In this document: in pieces, positions 42,901 through 57,900 of the stretch
Numbering within the stretch: position 1 is the first letter of the stretch
Layout of the letters: the number at the start of each line of letters is the position of its first letter
From: Liolophura sinensis
Lineage: Eukaryota; Mollusca; Polyplacophora; Chitonida; Chitonidae
DNA length: 64,000 nucleotides
Assembly: GCF_032854445.1 (NCBI RefSeq)
Contig: NC_088300.1
Span: 22,487,608-22,551,607 of the forward strand
Reading direction: 5' to 3'
Program-made: the position numbers and the translations under genes
The notes under the pieces: generated by a model
What the model was told of the DNA's origin: nothing
The model's database searches: none
Seen by the model: only the letters and a program-made list of their open reading frames with translations

Positions 42901-45900
42901 ATTAAAATATTATGGAAATTTACGGCTTGTATGTATCCCCTTGATAATATATTTTTAAGGAGCTTTCCCAAATTATTAGTAGGCCTAGTCTACAGGTACA
43001 TATGTTGGTGAATGAACTTTTGAACCAGATTTTAATTTTGATGTTTCAATAAGACCTTTAATTCATGGGGGAGCAGGGCTTGAAAAGCAGGAGTCTCTAA
43101 CACCTGCCTTGGATTGGTCAATCAGCCCAATGGTGAATACAACAGTCTTCAAGGGCTTTTCAAAGTATCAGTTGAGTCCATCTTGTAAAATAACTATGGG
43201 TTCCAAACGCTTGGACTCTAGCTTGCTATTTACAGTTTTCTGTCCAAAGTTTCTCCCTCTTACTGCACTTGACTTTGCAAGGTATTTTAGTATTTCCCTT
43301 GTAGTAAAAAAACATACACCTCATGTAAAGTGATGTTTATGAGACTACATCTGCTTTTGCCTGTCACCCCAACTTTCAGCTTACACACAACACATGTTGT
43401 TTTGATAAAAATGGACTGAAAAGTGAAAGAACTGGTGGTTATTCGCTGGCCACATCACATACTCATTGAGGAGTCTGAATATTGATTGTGTCAAGTGCAG
43501 GACTTGTAGGCATGCAGCATTGATGTGGGCTGAAATATCAGTAATTACAAACATGTGCTTAGTCCATCTTCATGGACTTGGTGTTCTGTTTTTTTCACAT
43601 CTTGACATTAATGGCAACAACGAGTCCATCTCTAACAGTTACAACCATTCAATGGCACAGAAAGCGAACCTTTAAAAACTTGACAGTCTATCTCGTCTTT
43701 CCCCGTCTTGCGAAGCTGGTTAGGCTCACTGAGGTGTGACAGAGGCATGGACAGCTGTCACTGATCGACTACCAGCAATCCCGTACTCCCTATAGAGAGT
43801 GTATGACATAAGTGAATAGAGTAGTGCAGAAAAGTCAACAAGGTACCAGTCAACAACTGTTGAAAATAGTGTTTTTGTACAATACCAACACATACATCAT
43901 GAAAATGTTAGATACTTTACACAAAATGAAGCTTGGTTATTTTTTTTTTTTTTTTCTGTCTTTGGCATGAATCTTCAGTGGGGGCGGCATCATGACGGCA
44001 TCCTGCCCCAAGAAGACAGTATATGTACACACACCTGATGACTCTTTGGTATCATGTGATGGAAAAAGTATGACGCAAAACCCAAAGCATACATACATAC
44101 ATGCTAATTGAACACATCAATCTTAGACTATCTGGTGTTATATATATTTGTAGATTTTACTTTAAGTTTGCTGAACATTGGCATTGTGAACTCAGTTTTC
44201 GTTTTTTCTTTCTTTTCAAAAAGTCTATAGGCACACGCTACGTGTTTACATGGGATTGGCAGATTTGCAGGTTGTTGTGTTCCTTTTACCTTGTATTTTG
44301 CCAGTAGTTCAAATTTCAGCCTTCTTATGTTAATTGTTGGGTAGAAACTTACTTGTTGCCTTATTTCCTCAGATCAAAGAAGGAAAGAATAGGAAAAAGC
44401 GTGAAGGCACATTAAGGCCTCAGGCGAAAACAACGCCTGCAGGGAATCCAACGCCTGCAGGGAATCCAACACCTGCAGTGAATCCAACGCCTGCAGTGAA
44501 TCCAACGCCTGCAGGGAACCCTACGCCTGCAGGGAATCCAACGCCTGCAGGGAACCCTACGCCTGCAGGGAATCCATCAGCTCCAAGAAATTCACAACGT
44601 GTGAAAAATGTCCCAGAAATGTCCCAGAAAAAGGTGATTTTTGAGATACTGTAGATATCTGGAGATACTGTAGATATCTGGAGGATCTAGAGACTATTTT
44701 TGTTAATTTCATGCATAGGGGACTCAGGCAGTCAGTCCCTCATAAATCATTTTTGAGGACTTTTGTTTAATATGCTCCATCATATTGAATTAAAATCTGG
44801 TACATGACTTCACCAAGGAGACAAGAAGGTAAATTTTCAGGGTTTTTTTTTTCACTTTCCACAAAATTATCACTAGTTTTGTCCTGTTGTATACCTTAAC
44901 TGTTTTGTTGCCTTTTTTTTTCCAAAATGATTTCATGACACTGTATTAAAACTTCGTACATGAAAACTTGCAGATTAGATTGGAGTTTTGGATCACTTTG
45001 TCCATTTTCAACAAAATTATTGTTGTTTAGGTCCTGTTGCAGCTTGACATTTTTTTTTTTTTTTTTAATTGTTCACTGTATTGAATTGAAGTTTAGAACT
45101 TGGGGTTTTGGGGTCGGCCCAGTCATAAATATTTACAGCCAACCCAGAATTAACAGTAGGTACAAGTACTTGCCTTGGGCAGACTGTTAGTTAGTAATTT
45201 TCGATTTAGTTTTCAAAGATATGCAATTTAATTGTGTCCAAAAAAAAAGTGGTGAGAAAATTTTTTTTTTTTTGCCTGTTGTTAGCTGCTGAATCAATAT
45301 GATGTGGAACTCTTTTGAAAATGAAGTTATGAAAAGACAGTGACTGGTACAGTTTCTATTAATACGGACCACAAATATGTACGAGTTTTAGATATAGTCA
45401 TGATCGTAACTCTGAAATGCTACGATCACATAACAATTCTTTTGTGCAAGTGGCTTAAAAAAAACCAACAAAAGAAACAAATGACAATATTTAAAGTACT
45501 TGCATTACTAGAGGTGATAATGTCAAGCTGCCAGTTGTATAAGAACTAGTGTAAGCAAGAACTGTGATATTTACAGGGATTGGTCTGCAGGACGTGGCAG
45601 GAAGGCGTGTTTCTCTTTGTGGTCGTGCTATCTATGAACGGCACTGACACTCCAAAGGAAGCTAACGTGTTCGGTAAGTTTTTTCTTCATTGGTCAGCAA
45701 AGAATGATGTATTAGGTTGGTAAAAAGGTTTTCCTGTGTGAAGACAAAATCTTTGCAGTTTCCACAAGATTATCCTGATTTGACGTGATGATGTTCCTCA
45801 TGTGATGTTTAATAAGGCAGATATGACGTCGCTATGTTTTAATATAGTGCAATTTTTTTTACTCTTTAGGAAAGACATTGATCCTATCTCGACTCTTACC

Positions 45901-48900
45901 ACTTAGCCCTGCTTTTAAGAGATACATCGGAGTAGCTCTTTAACTGACACAACCATTTTTTTCTGAGATGCTTGGCACCTGTTAGTCCACCAAAACTCAG
46001 TTGCTTATTAAATACAGAAGTAGGTCACGTGACACTTGAAAATGGCTGTCGACAGTGAGGCACTTGGAACTGCTGAAATTCTAGCAGTCAGTGGGACCAC
46101 CAAACAGCGAGTTAATTAGTTTCATACAAGAGGATAGTAAATAAAGAGGATAAGATTAGAGATTTCACCATAAAATTACATATAAATGAGCAGAGGAGGT
46201 GAGTTGGATTACCACAAGTTGGAAGGAGATGAGACTTTGAAATCCACGTGGATGGACTCCACGATGAACGTCAGAATTTTAAAATAGCTCACTCAGTCCC
46301 TCTGTATGGACTAGGCATCTGTGCAAATCAACTTTTAATCTGGAGTTCTTTACTATGTGGACATGGAATACATACACGCCACACTACAGAAACTGGAAAC
46401 CAGATGATCTGTCACTTGTATCCTCCACTCTTCAGTCTATTTGGCTGAAGAGTTTAAACAGCAATCACATGACATCACAGTGTCTTCTGGGGTTACAGAA
46501 TTGACTTGCACCTTACAGCTTTGCTATACATACAGAAAGATTGACTTTTTAAAACTTGGATACTTTATATATACAAATTTGATTTGGTGTCTTTTCTTTT
46601 AACCTGATTTTGCTAACAGGGGGCCTCTGTGGCCCAGATGCTTAATATGCCTAGGAGCCTCTCACCAATTAGGTCTCTCATGCTCTTACTGTCTTCCTGT
46701 GGCCTTTCAGCAACGTGCGAATGATCGTGGGTTTCCCCGGGGCCCTGCCCACTTTTCTGCCACAATAATGCTGGCTGCAGTTGTATAAGTGAAATATTCT
46801 ACAAAATAAATATTTTGCTAACTGTTTGGCTGCTGTCAACAAAAGCGAATCTGCTTAACAATCAGAATTACACGGTTGATAATCATGTGTTATTTTCTTG
46901 TAGTTGAGATTTCCATGAAGAATGACAATGGATTTTTGTCAGCAATGGAATGGCCGCTTCTCATCGTGAGTATTAACAGTAGTTGGTTAATTTATTTTGT
47001 TATATATCTTCTTCCTTTGTAATTTCACATATTCATGTAATATTTTCTGATATCATATGTTTTTACATTAACATATAAACACAATGAAAGATTTATTTTA
47101 TTAAAATTGCAACAAAATAATAATATGGCCAATCATGACTTCATTCTTCAGCATATTTATCACAATTCTTTTTCATAAGGCCTCGGACTATTCGGGGTCA
47201 CATTGCATATTCATCATGCGGTCAGCTGATAACGTGCTTTAACGAGACTTCCGGTCCAAGTGGTACTGTCCGTTATAAACCATATTCACCTCAATGACCA
47301 TGTGTTCTTTCATCACGCGGCCGCGTAAGAAGATAGGAAAAAGTGCAGCAGCTAAGTTGGACACAGTCTCGGTTGCTGGTCGCAGCAATGAAATTGAGCG
47401 GGATGTTGACCTGGACTCGGACAAAGCCGCTTCTTAGACAGGTGTGATAAGGATTGTTTTCCAATAATGTCTATGGGCCTTGATGGGGCCACAGCTCCCT
47501 CAAAAGACACCGTCACCGGCGAAAACTGGCGACAGGCCCTAAACTGACCACAGGTCCACGTAAACAATGTGCTTTGTCACCCTCAAGGAAGGGCAAGTGC
47601 AAAGCATGCACCAGAAATTCTACCTCAAATAAACTTGCACAAAGACCACGTGGTCTTGAGAGGTTCGTTGAAGGGGACATGTTGGTTCTGTGAGACTCGG
47701 TGTCTGCTCTTTGGAGGACAGATTGGACAAATTACTATAGTTTACATTGCCCGAGAAGGCCAGCTGTGATACCTTTTGCGAGGCCAGCTTTGGCTTTGAA
47801 AATCTGCTTGAGCCTTCTACCAAACTCGGAGATGATGAGGTCTTATTTACCATAGGTTCGTCGAAACAGCAACAACAGTTGATTGTCGATTTGGACTTAT
47901 TAAAGATTATAAAGGATTATAAAGATATTTTTACAATATCCGAGGTGAATGGAGCTCCCTTAGGTTCAAAGGTAGCTAACTTCATAGAAAAAGAAGAATG
48001 TGCTTATGCTCACAGAGCAACATCCCATGTCAAGCAAGAGAAACATCCCATATCAAGCAAGAGCAACATCCCATATCAAGCAAGAGCAACATCCCATACC
48101 AAGCAAGAGCAACATCCCATATCAAGCAAGAGCAACATCCCATACCAAGCAAGAGCAACATCTCCATACCAAGCAACTGTGAGCAACTATAACCACCTTG
48201 TATTTACTCAGAGATGTGGGCGTTGTTGAACACTGTGACTAAATCTAGAGACCTTTCTATTAATAAGCTACAAGAACTCTTAGGCACAGAATAACAGCTG
48301 TGGAACGGCAAGCTTAGCTGTTGTCTTCACTAAAAGAAGATATTAAACTCCAACAATGCCGAGTGCTTGCATCTGAGCCTGTTTTATTTCTGTGCAACCT
48401 GTTTTTTAATATCTCTTACTTTTAGAGGCTCTGGGTACAGCCTTTGTTATCATGCAAATATGCATCTTTGCGCATGCAGAATGCCTCTACAATGAATTGT
48501 TTATTTGGGACAACGTGAAAGAATGTGTCAGCGAAATAGACAATATTTCTATACTAAGTAGAACAACTGAATCCACTTGAACAAAAAACCCGTATCGGGG
48601 GTTTGGGTGTGACATAAGAGGCCTGCACAGAGGGAGGCCTCGGCCCTTCCCATCAAGATAGGGAGGTTACAGAGGCAGGATATAGCAGCAACTAACTCAG
48701 CCTCATATGTTGAAAAAGTAGAGGAAAGTTTTTTCAAGGCGGGAGCTTTATCTATACAAATTTCAGAGTGGAAAAAATGATCCAATAACCCATGGGTGTT
48801 ACAAAATGTGGTAGGACATAAAATTGAATATTTAAGATTACCTTGCCAGAAAAGTATGCCAGTCCCTATTCAGGCTTCAGCGAATGATCGTGTACACATC

Positions 48901-51900
48901 AGTCAGGGGCTTACAGTGCTCTTGCAGAAAGACGTAATTGAAGTTTGCAAAGCGGAACATGACCAGTTTCTATCAAATATTTTTGTGTGCCAGAAAAACA
49001 AAAAATGAGAAGTTTTGAACTATATTGAATTAATACCTATTGTTCAGGTATATGTACATGTAAGTTTATGTTTGTGCCTGATATAGACCTGTTTACCTCG
49101 AGTTAGTCAGCCTTCGTCAGTCAGGCTTTCAATTGAGGCTGCCATCATGTCTCTAAATCATAGTTGTCAAAGGGTTATTAGTCCCATTTCACTGCCTAAA
49201 AAGTGTGTTGTGAACTATCTAGCAGAGTTAGCTTCAGATTTAGCTTACAGTGTAGTTAACACACACAGTTCCGTGTTGTCACAAACTTTATTTCTTTGTG
49301 GATGTATAGTGCCACAGGATGTGATAGGATGAAAGGACTGTTTGAGTAAGACCCTCCAGTTCCTAGGAGTACAACGTTAAACCCCAAGCACTCACTCACT
49401 CCAGTTCCTAGGTATAGCCACACATGGGATGTGAAGAACATTTTACATTATTTCAAATCTTGTGTTCTGGCGTTGTTGGCTCTTGTCACATCACAGTGAG
49501 TGCAAAGTTTGCAAGCCTTGACCTGAAGTGGAATGCGACTGTCGCAGTTTGGTCAAAAGTTGAGTTTCAGTTTTTAAGTCCCTTAAGACCACTCTGAGAA
49601 ATGGTCCCTTTAAGCTAGTGCAAATTGTGAAGTATAATGACAAAGATTTGTGTGTTGTAGAGACATTGGTGATATACATGTATCTTAAAAAAACAAATTG
49701 GTGGCGTACTTGTGCTCAATTGTTGACTTTTAAGCCTGTTAATACACCAGCTATTACAAGATGGGTGTGCAATGTGTTATCCTTTTCAGGTATTGACTCT
49801 GATTTGTTTAAGGCACATTGGTTTCATAGTGCGGCAACTTCCAAAGCTATAAGTAAGGGCATTTCAGTTTGTGACATACTTAAAACGGCTGACTGGTCTA
49901 GTGCTAAAGTTTTCCATGATTTCTATCATCGATCGGTGGTTTACATGGCTGGCTCAGGGTTTGATATCTCCATGGTTTATTATCAGTGAAATTTGTATGC
50001 AGTGATATCTGGTGTTCCGTTATCTGTTGTCACTTATCGTTAAACATGCAATGTGACCCCGAATAGGCTGAGGCCTTACGGAAAAGAACTCCTCCTTGTC
50101 CTCATCCCAGCATCTTGGGAGAGATGTGCAGGATGAGAGGGATTGTTTTAGTATACAAGGCCATGGCTTTGAGCAATCACATCCACCCAAGTGATTGTTG
50201 CATTGAGGTATCAAGTATCCAATCAGTAGCTGGTGATCTTCAACAGACAGAAGATCTGTGGGATGTTACATTGTGTAATATCATTCAGGTATCAGGAATC
50301 CTGATCAGTAAACCAGCAATCTGGTTTCCCTCCCTACTCAATGACAACAGAATTTTGTTGTTGAGCAGACATGGTCATTGAGGTTGAATATGGTTTATAA
50401 TGGACAGTACCATGGGACCAGAAGTCTCGTTGAAGCATGTTATCAGCTGACCACACCTAATGACACCTAATAACTTCTTGTCATCTTATAACTGAAAAAT
50501 TGTTAAGTACAATGTAAAACCCCAAGCACACATGCATGCATAAACATACGATTGCCTCGTACTACAAGGCCTGGAAAGCCACACCATGTGTGAACTGCAA
50601 AACTAGAGTATTGAAAGACCGTGCTATTTCTGTTATAATCACATGTAGATCTGTGAGGAAGGCCCGAACTCTAGGGTAATGATGGCCACTGCCTTGTAGA
50701 GAAAATATCATATTACATTCCAGCCTTGTTTACTGTGATGTGTTTTTTTATACATCTGTATTATGAACTGTGTTATAATGTTGTCCATTGGTCCATTTGT
50801 GTGTTTGTCCAGCTGTATACTTTGTAGGGTTGAACAGGCTTATCACATCTGATAACATTTTGTCTCTTGCAATAGGACAAAAGCCTATGAAAAATGAGGG
50901 ATGCCAATAAAATTTCCGAAGTCAAACCCCTTTTTTGTTATGTTTTTTTTTTTGTGTGTGTGTGTGTGTGTGTGTCAAGTCTATAGTTGAAGAACAGCAT
51001 CACTTAAAAATTCGAAACAGGACAATCCTGTGCATTTCAATCACCAGCACCAAATCTGATAGCGTCTTTTACTATTCATTCCATGAGGGGAAGATCTTGT
51101 GGTTCCATAGCTATTTTTTGTAATATTGTACATTCAAAATCCTGTATTTCTTGCAGTTTTATGGTGTCATGTGCATTGTTTATGTGGTGCTTGGTCTGAT
51201 CTGGCTGGTTTTACTGGCATGTAACTGGAGAGATTTGCTCAGGGTACAGTTCTGGATAGGTGGAGTTATTGTTCTTGGTAAGGCCTCTGGCATGTACATC
51301 TTGTTATTTTAGTATTTTACTTAAAAATTACCATGTTTTCAGAACATGTTTTATTTAAGTTTTTATTTGTTTTCGTGCTATTTCCTTCTGTCCTTATCCA
51401 TCTTAAAGTATTAACATATCTACCACGTCCTTTTCTTTATAAGAATTCGGAATGCTCTCAGAAATTTTGTACAAAGTTTATTCACTCTAGTAATCAAAGG
51501 AGTGCTGTTGTCATCAGAGATATTATTCTACTGAAAGGAATTGTGTAGTGTATGTTTAAAACAAATACAGTTACGAAATAAATCGGGTTTGTACACAGTT
51601 TACTTGTTTTCCAGGAATGTTGGAGAAGGCAGTATTCTATGCAGATTTGCAAAGCATAAACCATAAGGGTGAATCAGGTATGTGAACCACTCTGACCATC
51701 ACTCTGACAAATGATATTTGGAAATTTTGGGGATTCATTGAATATTCATTAAGCTTTCGGGATGGTTTACCTTCCTAAAATTTTATGCACCTTTGATAAC
51801 TTGCCGTTTTTTTAATACTACAATATCTGTTGTCCAAGACATCATGTGAGTAGAAGTGAATTCTTTTTGTTTTCATTGGCCTAGTTTTAATTTAATAAAC

Positions 51901-54900
51901 AAACATTTTTAATTGTTTTAATAAAAAAGCATTTTTAAGTAATAACATTGTACATTTGGTATTATGTTAAGCAAGTAATGATTCCTTTATAAACTTTCAG
52001 TTCCCGGTGCTGTTATATTTGCTGAGCTTGTCTCATGTTTCAAGAGGACAGTTGCTCGTATGTTGGTGATTATTGTCAGCCTGGGATTTGGAATTGTCAA
52101 GTGAGTTACATTCATGATCAGCAAAAAGGAAATTTTTATCTACAGATGAATTTAGAAGAGTAGACATTTTTATTTTGTGCTTATATTTGCCCACAAGAAA
52201 TGATCACTTAAACTTATAGCTTTACAGTTTTTGCTACATATAAATCTTCATCCTTTTTAAATTCTGAAACACTATTTTCAGTGGAATTTTTGCGCACAAT
52301 TATTCCGAAAATGATGATAAAATGATTCATATGTGACTAAAGATGCAAGGGTCATGAAGCTGTGCAATTTTTTTTTCATCTCTCATAGCTCTCGCAGAAT
52401 GTTTCAAAATGTTAGTTGCAGTGGTGGTTGAAAAGGTGAAAGAATTGTGGTAGTCTTCTCCTCTTGCTTGAACCAGTATCGTTTGAATGTACAACGAGGT
52501 TTCATGCAGTTAAGAGTGAGATTTTTGTCTGTCACTATATGAATCAAATATTATGTTGGCTGCAAATGCTGCCTTTTAAACTGATGCACTAATAAGTGAG
52601 TTATCTTTTCCTGAAAGGCCCTTACATATTCAGTGGGTATGTTTACCTCTGTAGCATTGCTTAATAGCTGTCACTGCCCTTTAGATACCATGCGATTTCT
52701 GTATTCACACCTGTAATCATTCTTCACTTCAGACCCAGACTGGGACCCATGCTGCACAAAGTCTTGGGAGTGGGCAGTCTGTATTTTATATTTGCAGCAG
52801 TTGAGGGCTGCTTTAGAGCAGTTAAGGTAAGATGTTAGCCTTGACTGTTAGACCTGCCCATGGCTCTGTTTACTGAAGAGTATTTATGGAATGGGAGCCA
52901 TACATTCTGACCTATCTGAGCCATCCATTCTGACCTACCTGAGCCATACATTCCGACCTATCTGAGCCATACATTATGGTGTACAGTTCAGTTAATGAAT
53001 CTGAATGTTCATGGCTTCTGATAGGGAAGTGAAATGTTTATAGGTTCTTAGCTTGATATGAAATATTTACTTGCTTTAGAATTCTTTTTATTCATTTATT
53101 TATGTAATTATTTGCTGCATTTCACTTAACAATTTGGTATATAATATGCATTTTCAGATGCACATTTAGGCCTTAAAATGATTCTTTTCACACCAACACT
53201 GAAGTTTTTTGAAAGGTTTGAGAAATTAGTCAATCCATTAAAAACAATGTTCACCTAGAAAATGCTGAACTTGGGGTGATATACGTTATCAGCTTATTAT
53301 TGACTTACTTTTTTATTTGATTGATGCTTAACGCTGTTCACAAGAATTCTTCACTTATACTGTAGTGGTTAGTTCTATAGGAGGCAGAAACTGGAGTGGT
53401 AAACCAGTGACTTTTGGTAAGTTACTTACGAACTTATTATGTTTCCTGTGAAATTGATTATTAGGTTTTCTGCAAAATTGATTCTGGAAAATGGCATGGT
53501 GTAGGACTATGTATATGTACTTACATGTACTTTTATGCTCCCACACTGTGATTTCCTATGTTACATTCAAAGTTAAAGAGTCATCAATCTTCTCAGGATA
53601 GCCATGTCTGCAAACATGATTATGGGACGTTTTGAAGGTGTTATTGTCTTTGAACATGAACATGTTAAAGATAAAAGTGATGCTAGCGAATTGTGAAGAT
53701 GTTGTTGAATGCATTTGTTGTTTTTGATTTTAGTCAAAATCTGACCAGTCCAAGAATTTACTGCTGGCTGCTGTTCCGCTGGCCCTGGTAGATGCCATCA
53801 TCTGCTGGTGGATATCCTTTTAGTACATCTGATAATATCACATCAAATTTGGTATCTTTATAACTGAATGCTCCTAAAGGCATTTTGGAACAATCACTGG
53901 AGAGTGGATAAAAATATGCTTGAGAAGTGCATGATATACCGTGTAACCATGTAGTTTTCAAGCATAGCAGGCTTTAAAGTTCATTCTTGTGTGAAAGTAT
54001 ATTTGCATGTGAGAAAATGTTTATGTAGTATAAAGAAAATCACTGTCTAAAATTTGATGGTTTTTGTGAATAATTAAATGTTAGACCATTTAGACCCTTA
54101 ACATGTTCACATCTTCACAAGCCTGGTGCAAACCTTGAGAACTTTGAGGCTGAGAAGAAACATTGTCAAGTTGTCCCTCTACAGACATTTCACCAACACC
54201 TTAGTATTTGCTGTGCTGGGTAAGGTGCTTTTATGTCTTCCTCTTCTGTAAGAGTAGATTTGAGTCTGCTGTTGCTGTATTGTCTGTATGCCTGTAATTC
54301 TATGTATGAGGAAAATTGCATTTAATTCAGAGAAGCGATCAAATATTTGTGAGAACACTGATTAAACTCCCTCAAATAAACTGTATTGTTTGGGTCTAAA
54401 CCTTGAAAATGTCTTCTAATCTAAGTGGGCATGGAAGTACATTGCTTACAAACAAATACTTTCACTAGCTTTAACACAAAAATTAACATCAATACCATAT
54501 TGGTCATGTGTTTTCTTATACAACACATTTGTGCCAGCTTAAGGTGAATAAAATGTTAGATTTGTAGATGTAAGCATGTGAGCTGGCTCCAAAGCCAGGA
54601 AATCGCCACTAGTGTTATGGCGGCCGTGGGCTCTTTGCTCACAAACGAGTACTGTCGCCTATCGGGAAAGTAAGCCCTAAATAATACAACCTGAACTATG
54701 TATTTTATGTTTCTTGTCTGCCTGTGTGACAGATGGCGTTTTTGTGAGCAAATTGGTACATGTGACTGTAGCAGTGGATGAGAACAGTGGCCAGTTTGCC
54801 TTGGATGCAAGGAAAACTTATCCTATCTAAGCGAAAAATTCTGGAGTAAACATGTCAAATAAATGAAGAAAAAAATGTATGCACTATTCTTGTTAGCTTT

Positions 54901-57900
54901 CTGATATTGTTATTTCCAGCTTCAATAGCCTTTATGGTATGGTCCTACACACAGCACCGTCTCAAGTTATGCCTTACAGTAAGTAATACATCAAACATTT
55001 ACATAAAATCTATTTCTTTCTTTTCCATTTCTCCTATATAGATTTCTTCTGAATTCCTATTTCGTTTTGCAAAAGCCAGTACATACAAGAAATTTAACAT
55101 CTATTTAATTGATGTTAATTATTAAAGTTACCATAGTTCCATGATTTTGTGAAATAAAATAAGGGTTAAATGATAAGTTTATAGATAATCTGGATTGCAT
55201 TCCTACATTATGAATGATGTTTTCAGGGTATCAATTCATACTTTCTATGTCTTGGAGGATTCTATGTAAAAAAAGGTTTTCTGTCCTTTTCATTTTACCT
55301 GATGTTCCGCCATGTAAGAACACGTTAGTTACCCAGCACAGACTGTTTTACTGAAGCCACAGCTGATACGTCTGATATCATTTCTGCATAACTTCTGTAC
55401 TTTTCAAGTCTCCAAGGGCATTTCGTATGGAAATTTACGATCAGAGATTAATAGGTTTTGTTTTTTTACTCTGTAAGGCATCCTTCATATAACTGTACTT
55501 AAGTGACATTCAGTCAGGTTTCTCTTGGAACAGGAATAGCCTTTTAAGTTTCTTTTTACCAGAATCTTTTGCTCTGATTTGATTGTCACATTCAAGGCAG
55601 ACTTTGAATGCACATTACGATTTGATGCTTTACTGCACAATAGGGTCAGGCTATAAATTCCAATATGGTGGTGTTGGGGGAGGGGAGTGGGGATGGGGGG
55701 TGTTGGTGGAGGGGTGTGTTACATTAACACAAGGAACTAATTTAACAGGTTTGCTTTTGTCTTCTAAATTATGTTCTTTGGATGCTGAATGTTGAAGAAA
55801 TAAGAATATTCTGCCAGTAGGTTTTGCTAAATAAGAATGTTGCAAAGTTAAAAGATAGGCAAATGGCACTATTGTACTTTAAACTGGCAACATCTTGTTT
55901 CACTTGGATGACGCTGTGTTGTCAAAATAACATGAGTCAAAAACTGCTTTTTTGTCACGTATAATTCTACATATTGTATCAGTTGGTGGGTTTCAAGTCC
56001 CTTGTGGCTGATTTCTTTCCTGCCTTTATTCACAACCTACACCAGAGATATTTGACGGACAACAATGATTTTGTTTGTGACAGGACTGGAAGGAGCTGTG
56101 GGTTGATGATGCCTACTGGCACCTGCTCTTCTCTGTGATACTCATTGTCATAATGGTTCTGTGGCGGCCAACTGCTAACAACCAGAGGTAAAAAATGAAG
56201 AGTGATATGACGGATTAATGATTGATCCATTGGTTGATTGATCAGTCTCAACAAGTAATGAGATTGATTAATCAACAGATCGACATACTGACTGATTGAC
56301 ATGTGCAATGACCAGCAGCCTCTTACCGATGCGGTCACTGTAAGTTCAAGTTTAGCTCATGCTGGGTTCCTCTCTGTATGTAGGAATCTCTGCCAGCAAC
56401 TTGTGGACAGCTGTGGGTTTCCCCTGGGCTTTGCCCTGTTTCCTCCCACCATAATGCTGGCCACCATTTTGTAAGTTATATATTATAATATTTAAACACC
56501 AGTCAAATTAATAAATAAGTAACTAAATGATCTGTAATGAGCAGTGGCTTTATATTTGAAGCCAATCAACCTTATTTGGAGAGCGTTTTTCCGGGTGGTG
56601 TTTTATACGTCCTGCTTCTTTATTTCTCAGGTATGCCTTCTCCCCACTGTTAGATGCCGCTGATGATGAGGCAGATGAGGATGTCATTATGAATGATGCA
56701 TTTGGTGAGCAGTTCTAACCTGTCTCTCTGCCAGAAACCTGAAGATGGTCACAGGTTTTTACTCGGTTTCCTACCACCATAATGTTGGCTTCTGTTGTAT
56801 ACATCAAATATTCTGGAGTAAAAACTACATTCTAACCTGTCATTCAATCTATACCTGTACATTTTTACATGCAGTGAATGATAGATACAGGTAGTGGTTT
56901 GGCATGAGCCCTTGTCCAATAAGGTTGTAAGTTCAAATCCTCTTATCCTGGCTCTAGGTGAACTACCGTGTTTCACCTAAAGTTTAGCATTTTTCAGGTC
57001 ACACATTCGGCTTGATTCTGATTGATAACCCACATTTTAGAGTCACTTAAAGATTTTTTGTAAAGTTTGATTAACGTCTTGTCAGAAAAACTTGAAAGTT
57101 GATATCAAAAATATGATTTTATGGTATTTATGTGCTCCTGAAATTGGATTTTTTCATACCAAACTTTAGGTGAAACACAGTATTCTTCACGCCAAGTTAA
57201 AAACTACAAGAGACTGAATTAGGTATTTGGTCTTGTAATGTACTTTAGTGGGCATGTTTTGACAGGATCATGGTCAACTGGTTTAAGATGCTTGTCTTTC
57301 GATTGCAAGGACACACTGTATGTATTCAATTCCGGCTTTGGACATGGAATTTGTATTTTATCCAGCTCTTACTGTTTGTAGGTCCTTGAGGACAACAAGC
57401 ATTGTCCACGCTTTTATAACCGTTTGTTGAAGAGCACTTGTCTTACACCCATATGGTGTTAATACAGTGTGGCCTCGCTATAGAGCGCCACTTTGGGGAC
57501 AGGTTCCTAAGCGTATGATAGGCTACCTCGCGCTGGAATGAAATGACCTGTAGATAGGTCCAGTATATTGGGCTACTGTATATAGGGCTACAGCCTATTG
57601 TACGGTCATTATTTTGACATTGAATGAAGTTTTATCAGTGCAAAATGTGTTTTGTCTAATGCTTTCTTATTGTTAGTTTACTATAAACGCACGAGATTAT
57701 ATGTTACCTAAGGATTCAAGCATTTCAGCACCATTCTACGAGTCATATCCCGCGAAGCTAGCCTCGTGTCGTGTAATCACAGGCCTGAACTGATCTACAG
57801 AACTTGCTGCATGTTAAACATTTCCACAAGCTCAATTCAAGTAGTTTCATCCACTTCTTTTTTAAATAAAAAAAATGCTACAGTGCATTTAGTATCCAAT

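What the first reader, a model, noticed from the sequence alone, without database searches (positions are those of the whole stretch)
53812..54110. AT-AC (U12-type) minor-spliceosome intron in TMEM87
Seen: the 5' site atatcctttt fits the U12 AT-AC consensus exactly, cccttaac fits the branch-site consensus (TTCCTTRAY), and the intron ends in AC 8-10 nt later. The resulting junction [11 protein letters not shown] is colinear with human TMEM87A, while no GT-AG alternative preserves it. Known: AT-AC introns are a small minority even among U12 introns, and position is often conserved over deep time. A standard GT-AG gene predictor would misplace this junction or drop residues.
Basis: partly seen in the sequence, partly recalled or inferred. 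Interest (0 to 1): 0.8.

Follow-up and report, generated by a model that had tools for sequence, protein, structure and literature searches.

The report
Rare-class AT-AC intron in TMEM87
A membrane-protein gene in an unnamed animal genome very probably carries one intron of the rare kind cut out by the minor spliceosome; mammals are already known to have a minor intron in this gene, so it is largely expected.

Summary
Window 53812-54110 (299 nt, phase 0) reads TGG|ATATCCTTTT...CCTTAAC-ATGTTCAC|ATC. The gene is TMEM87-like: nine joined exons match human TMEM87A at E 1.3e-105, colinear through CWW|IF. The other nine introns checked are GT-AG. The genome carries U11, U12, U4atac and U6atac RNAs, CENATAC and a second AT-AC U12-like intron in PHB2, the one control gene tried. 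Two corrections. First, one GT-AG intron (53823-54121, also 299 nt) does preserve length (CWW-ISFY-LVQT); it fits the family worse (289.3 against 298.8 bits) and its donor pairs with U1 at -1.6 kcal/mol, against -5.7 to -9.7 for seven GT donors of the gene. Second, the motif pair alone is not significant in 64 kb under a loose definition (1 seen, 1.16 expected); its coincidence with the homology-fixed junction is what counts. A minor intron in mammalian TMEM87a/b is already published (PMC6717393, PMC8329584, passages). No counterpart of the mutually exclusive exon 11a was found. Splicing is inferred; no RNA reads were available.

The parts
53812..54110 (+). AT-AC U12-type intron, 299 nt, phase 0
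53812..53821 (+). U12-type 5' splice site ATATCCTTTT; +4 to +10 are complementary (one U-G) to AAAAGGG at the 5' end of this genome's U11 RNA
54096..54102 (+). branch-site core CCTTAAC
   Evidence: complementary to the GTAAGG stretch of the U12 RNA in L002 with one A bulged (sequence, pairing by inspection)
54109..54110 (+). 3' splice site AC
53734..53811 (+). TMEM87 exon E (26 codons, SKSDQ...CWW), upstream of the minor intron
54111..54219 (+). TMEM87 exon F (IFTSLVQT...), downstream of the minor intron
51157..56704 (+). TMEM87 seven-helix region, nine exons A-I: 51157-51277, 51615-51677, 52001-52100, 52733-52826, 53734-53811, 54111-54219, 54920-54978, 56084-56187, 56631-56704
45577..46965 (+). 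two earlier probable TMEM87 exons, about 45577-45673 and 46904-46965, both followed by GT donors
   Evidence: for the open joined frame and splice dinucleotides; assignment to TMEM87 by recalled similarity only
53823..54121 (+). rival GT-AG intron of equal length, judged not used

Best explanation
The TMEM87 gene has one U12-type AT-AC intron among GT-AG introns. U11 recognises ATATCCTTTT, U12 pairs with CCTTAAC, U6atac replaces U11 at the 5' site, and the minor spliceosome, probably helped by CENATAC, removes 299 nt to join CWW to IFTSLVQT in the membrane domain. It is most likely the orthologue of the minor intron known in mammalian TMEM87a/b. Shown: sequence signals, frame, homology, presence of the machinery genes. 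Inferred: splicing itself, common descent with the mammalian intron, need for CENATAC.
For: Perfect 10-nt AT-AC donor and 7 of 7 branch core. Joined protein matches human TMEM87A at E 1.3e-105, gapless at the junction. AT-AC junction beats the length-preserving GT-AG junction by 13 BLOSUM62 points and 9.5 Pfam bits. Donor pairs weakly with U1 (-1.5 kcal/mol) but over 7 contiguous pairs with U11. U12, U11, U6atac and U4atac loci above Rfam cut-offs, with GAGTAAGGAA in U12 and GAAAGGAGA in U6atac and AAAAGGGC in U11. CENATAC/CCDC84 family above cut-off. PHB2 in the same genome has AAKM|ATATCCTTTG...CCTTGACcttggtgAC|ATAGGG, with the exons meeting at query residues 237 and 238; PHB2 stands as AT-AC in the fly-human table of PMC2831892 (passage, column heads not seen). 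Minor intron of mammalian TMEM87a/b in print.
Against: No RNA evidence. A GT-AG alternative of equal length and open frame exists. Relaxed motif pairs are expected by chance in a window of this size. The branch 9-mer has two mismatches and the branch-to-end distance is short. U11 pairing energy without regard to register is not discriminating: 506 of 9748 AT or GT starts on the + strand (the target included) are as good or better, and two GT donors of this gene score better (-8.4 and -7.0 against -5.8).
Confidence: 0.93

Rival explanations
1. A U2-type GT-AG intron at 53823-54121 is used, giving CWW-ISFY-LVQT.
For: Open frame, identical length, no residues lost; still scores 289.3 bits to GOST_TM.
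Against: Donor TTA|GTACAT pairs with U1 at -1.6 kcal/mol against -5.7 to -9.7 for seven GT donors of the gene; ISFY matches human IFIS at 1 of 4 residues against 3 of 4 for IFTS (alignment); leaves a perfect U12 donor unexplained.
Confidence: 0.04
2. A GT-AG intron at 53808-54121 is used and the protein is five residues shorter ([12 protein letters not shown] becomes ICCLVQT).
For: Open frame; U1 pairing -4.6 kcal/mol.
Against: Score falls from 210 to 159; removes WWIF, which is identical in human TMEM87A.
Confidence: 0.01
3. AT-AC intron spliced by the major spliceosome, as in some sodium-channel introns.
For: Such introns exist (PMC2831892, passages).
Against: The sodium-channel cases have G at +5; here +5 and +6 are CC as in U12 sites, and U1 pairing is -1.5 kcal/mol.
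Confidence: 0.02

Closest known systems
Minor intron of mammalian TMEM87a and TMEM87b, downstream of exon 11 (PMC6717393, PMC8329584; passages read)
   Same: Same gene family; the exon before it is 72 nt in mouse Tmem87b and 78 nt here.
   Different: In mouse Tmem87b, and by the review in TMEM87a too, a mutually exclusive exon 11a lies inside the minor intron; here the intron is 299 nt and no such exon was found. Mammalian dinucleotides and codon not seen in the passages read.
AT-AC U12-type intron of PHB2
   Same: Same subtype, same genome, same kind of signals.
   Different: Different gene; branch core CCTTGAC instead of CCTTAAC.

Membership tests
U12-type (minor) intron, AT-AC subtype | 5' site ATATCCTT | tested here: met
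   0 mismatches at 53812
U12-type (minor) intron, AT-AC subtype | branch site TTCCTTRAY close to the 3' end | tested here: met
   core CCTTAAC 7 of 7, full 9-mer 2 mismatches, branch A 9 nt before the intron's last base; met for the core, distance slightly short
U12-type (minor) intron, AT-AC subtype | ends in AC | tested here: met
   54109-54110
U12-type (minor) intron, AT-AC subtype | host genome has U11, U12, U4atac, U6atac | tested here: met
U12-type (minor) intron, AT-AC subtype | excised in vivo by the minor spliceosome | not testable with these tools
   no RNA data held
TMEM87 (GOST family) | GOST_TM domain and closest solved relative TMEM87A | tested here: met
   298.8 bits against cut-off 25.2; the 4 solved sequences matched at E up to 0.001 are all TMEM87A, best E 1.3e-105
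Orthologue of the mammalian TMEM87 minor intron | same codon and phase in mammals | not tested
   no mammalian gene sequence available; exon number and 72-nt exon length from PMC6717393 are compatible

The most novel reading that the evidence does not exclude
The intron has two boundary pairs, AT-AC (53812/54110) and GT-AG (53823/54121), shifted by 11 nt at both ends and both leaving the frame open. The minor and major spliceosomes could each remove 299 nt and yield two full-length proteins that differ only within four residues of one membrane segment (IFTS or ISFY), a frame-neutral dual-class intron in place of the mammalian exon 11/11a switch.
Probability: 0.04. Interest if true: 0.55.

Novelty: new member of a known kind. 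Interest (0 to 1): 0.25.

Why it matters
It adds an animal genome that is unnamed here, by guess an invertebrate, to the record of the TMEM87 minor intron. If the mammalian intron sits at the same codon, the intron would be older than, or would have lost, the mutually exclusive exon 11a, which was not found here. Practically, a gene finder limited to GT-AG could place the junction 11 nt off (ISFY) without any frame warning.

Tried and rejected
Exon 11a twin: local alignment of exon E and of the human segment against the three forward frames of the upstream intron, the minor intron and the downstream intron gave nothing above base shuffles (87 to 161 of 200 shuffles as good or better in the six comparisons). 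In the upstream intron and the minor intron, 11 stretches of 60-90 nt have AG before and a donor with at most 2 mismatches to RTATCCTT after; 9 of 11 contain stops and the two open ones (53465-53524, 53880-53942) do not look like a membrane exon by eye. A distant or differently built twin exon could be missed.

Second TMEM87 copy: the 9 matches of the 267-aa protein at E up to 1 (13 candidates scored) all lie in the window's own gene. Other GOST_TM matches on C13 and C12, and a weak one on C6 at 37.3 Mb, were not modelled.

Papers: seven search listings were seen. Passages only were read in PMC8329584, PMC6717393, PMC2831892 (12 of 27 places), PMC10639083, PMC7367187, PMC8280824 (12 of 14 places), PMC10565666 and PMC2941758. 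PMC10565666 only lists TMEM87a/b among genes with U2/U12 competition; PMC2941758 lists TMEM87A as a cassette-exon gene without detail; PMC9509394 was listed and not opened. Among these I saw no statement of the terminal dinucleotides of the TMEM87 minor intron; supplements could not be opened.

Rfam on the window: 0 matches at gathering score. PHROGs on an integrase-like reading frame: 0.

Full report
What is there. The stretch 53812-54110 lies between two coding exons of a gene on the + strand. Joining 53811 to 54111 gives an open frame, [61 protein letters not shown]. That stretch matches human TMEM87A (8HSI, 8CTJ) at E about 4e-20 without a gap over the junction. A nine-exon model, 51157-56704, gives 267 residues that match TMEM87A at E 1.3e-105 (one 3-residue gap upstream of the junction, inside exon E) and Pfam GOST_TM at 298.8 bits. 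In this model seven introns are GT-AG and one is AT-AC. Two further introns upstream also start with GT and end with AG; the exons there are assigned to TMEM87 from recall. So 9 of 10 introns looked at are ordinary.

Signals. The donor ATATCCTTTT is the only [AG]TATCCTTTT in the window on either strand. The branch core CCTTAAC is perfect, the two bases before it are not, and branch A is 9 nt before the intron's last base. PMC6717393 quotes an optimum of 11-13 nt, so this is slightly short. In 200 dinucleotide shuffles a strict motif pair occurs 0.05 times per strand and a relaxed one 1.16 times; one pair (the target) was seen on the + strand under either definition and none on the - strand. 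The motifs alone are weak evidence in 64 kb. Their position is strong evidence: they fall exactly where homology puts the junction.

Alternatives. Intron starts from 53780 to 53880 were combined with exon restarts from 54050 to 54174; 1032 pairs leave an open frame. Five share the best score of 210, being shifts of one to four bases that give the same protein (AT-AC, TA-CA, AT-AT, TC-TC, CC-CT). AT-AT is a known rare minor terminus, but its donor here would read ATCCTT, not ATATCC; only AT-AC carries the U12 motif in register. Four of the 1032 are GT-AG. Its Pfam score is 289.3 against 298.8. Its donor pairs with U1 at -1.6 kcal/mol; seven GT donors of the gene give -5.7 to -9.7 (U1 end recalled). 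The AT-AC donor pairs with U1 at -1.5 and with this genome's U11 at -5.8, over seven contiguous pairs (the register, +4 to +10, follows from complementarity). U11 energy without regard to register does not discriminate: 506 of 9748 AT or GT starts on the + strand do as well or better, the target included, and two GT donors of this gene do better.

Machinery. The genome holding the window (609 Mb, 632 contigs) has U12 (5 matches, 4 above cut-off), U11 (2), U6atac (2) and U4atac (1); 9 of these 10 matches are above the Rfam cut-off. The pairing segments of U12, U6atac and U11 are present; that of U4atac was not examined. CENATAC/CCDC84, which in human cells promotes splicing of AT-AN minor introns (PMC8280824, passages), is present in four pieces above cut-off. 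As a control, one gene, PHB2, was examined: its exon ending AAKM is followed by ATATCCTTTG, and the next exon is preceded by CCTTGACcttggtgAC; the two exons meet at query residues 237 and 238 without gap or overlap. PHB2 stands as AT-AC in the fly-human table of PMC2831892 (passage; column heads not seen).

Known background. PMC6717393 (passages) places the minor intron of mouse Tmem87b between exons 11 and 12, with mutually exclusive exons 11 and 11a of 72 nt each, 11a lying inside the minor intron. PMC8329584 (passages) describes the same layout for TMEM87a and TMEM87b. The exon upstream of the intron here is 78 nt. No exon 11a counterpart was found in the flanking introns. The terminal dinucleotides of the mammalian introns were not in the passages read. 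AT-AC introns are about 22-26% of minor introns in human. PMC2831892 finds that AT-AC minor introns convert to U2-type less often than GT-AG ones, and also that several invertebrate lineages lost most minor introns. PMC10639083 reports relative enrichment of minor introns in molluscs and some other invertebrates, and a usual bias of minor introns away from phase 0, which this one does not follow. Where the machinery is kept, a retained AT-AC minor intron is no surprise.

Verdict. A U12-type AT-AC intron on the sequence evidence, with the reservations listed, in a gene already known for its minor intron. Interest is modest: the lack of a detectable exon 11a and the frame-neutral GT-AG pair offset by 11 nt are the only new details.

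Noticed in passing
window 46966-51156: The 4.2-kb intron before exon A holds what looks like degenerate mobile-element sequence; the frame 49618-49989 resembles the end of a tyrosine recombinase of a DIRS-like retroelement (recalled resemblance only; no Pfam or PHROGs match).
   Followed up: partly
window 52890-52990: Short imperfect tandem repeat of about 24 nt (around cattctgacctatctgagccata) in the intron before exon E, seen by eye.
   Followed up: no
window 44430-44580: Coding-like tandem repeat (units reading about NPTPAG) upstream of the TMEM87 exons, seen by eye; its frame has no Pfam match.
   Followed up: partly
G000 C1:65318678-65336263: U12 RNA gene cluster: three matches above and one just below the Rfam cut-off within 18 kb, two of them near-identical (L002, L003).
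   Followed up: no
G000 C13:10157155-10158193 and C12:4538818-4539141: Other GOST_TM family loci, perhaps GPR107-like relatives by recall; not checked for an intron at the equivalent place.
   Followed up: no
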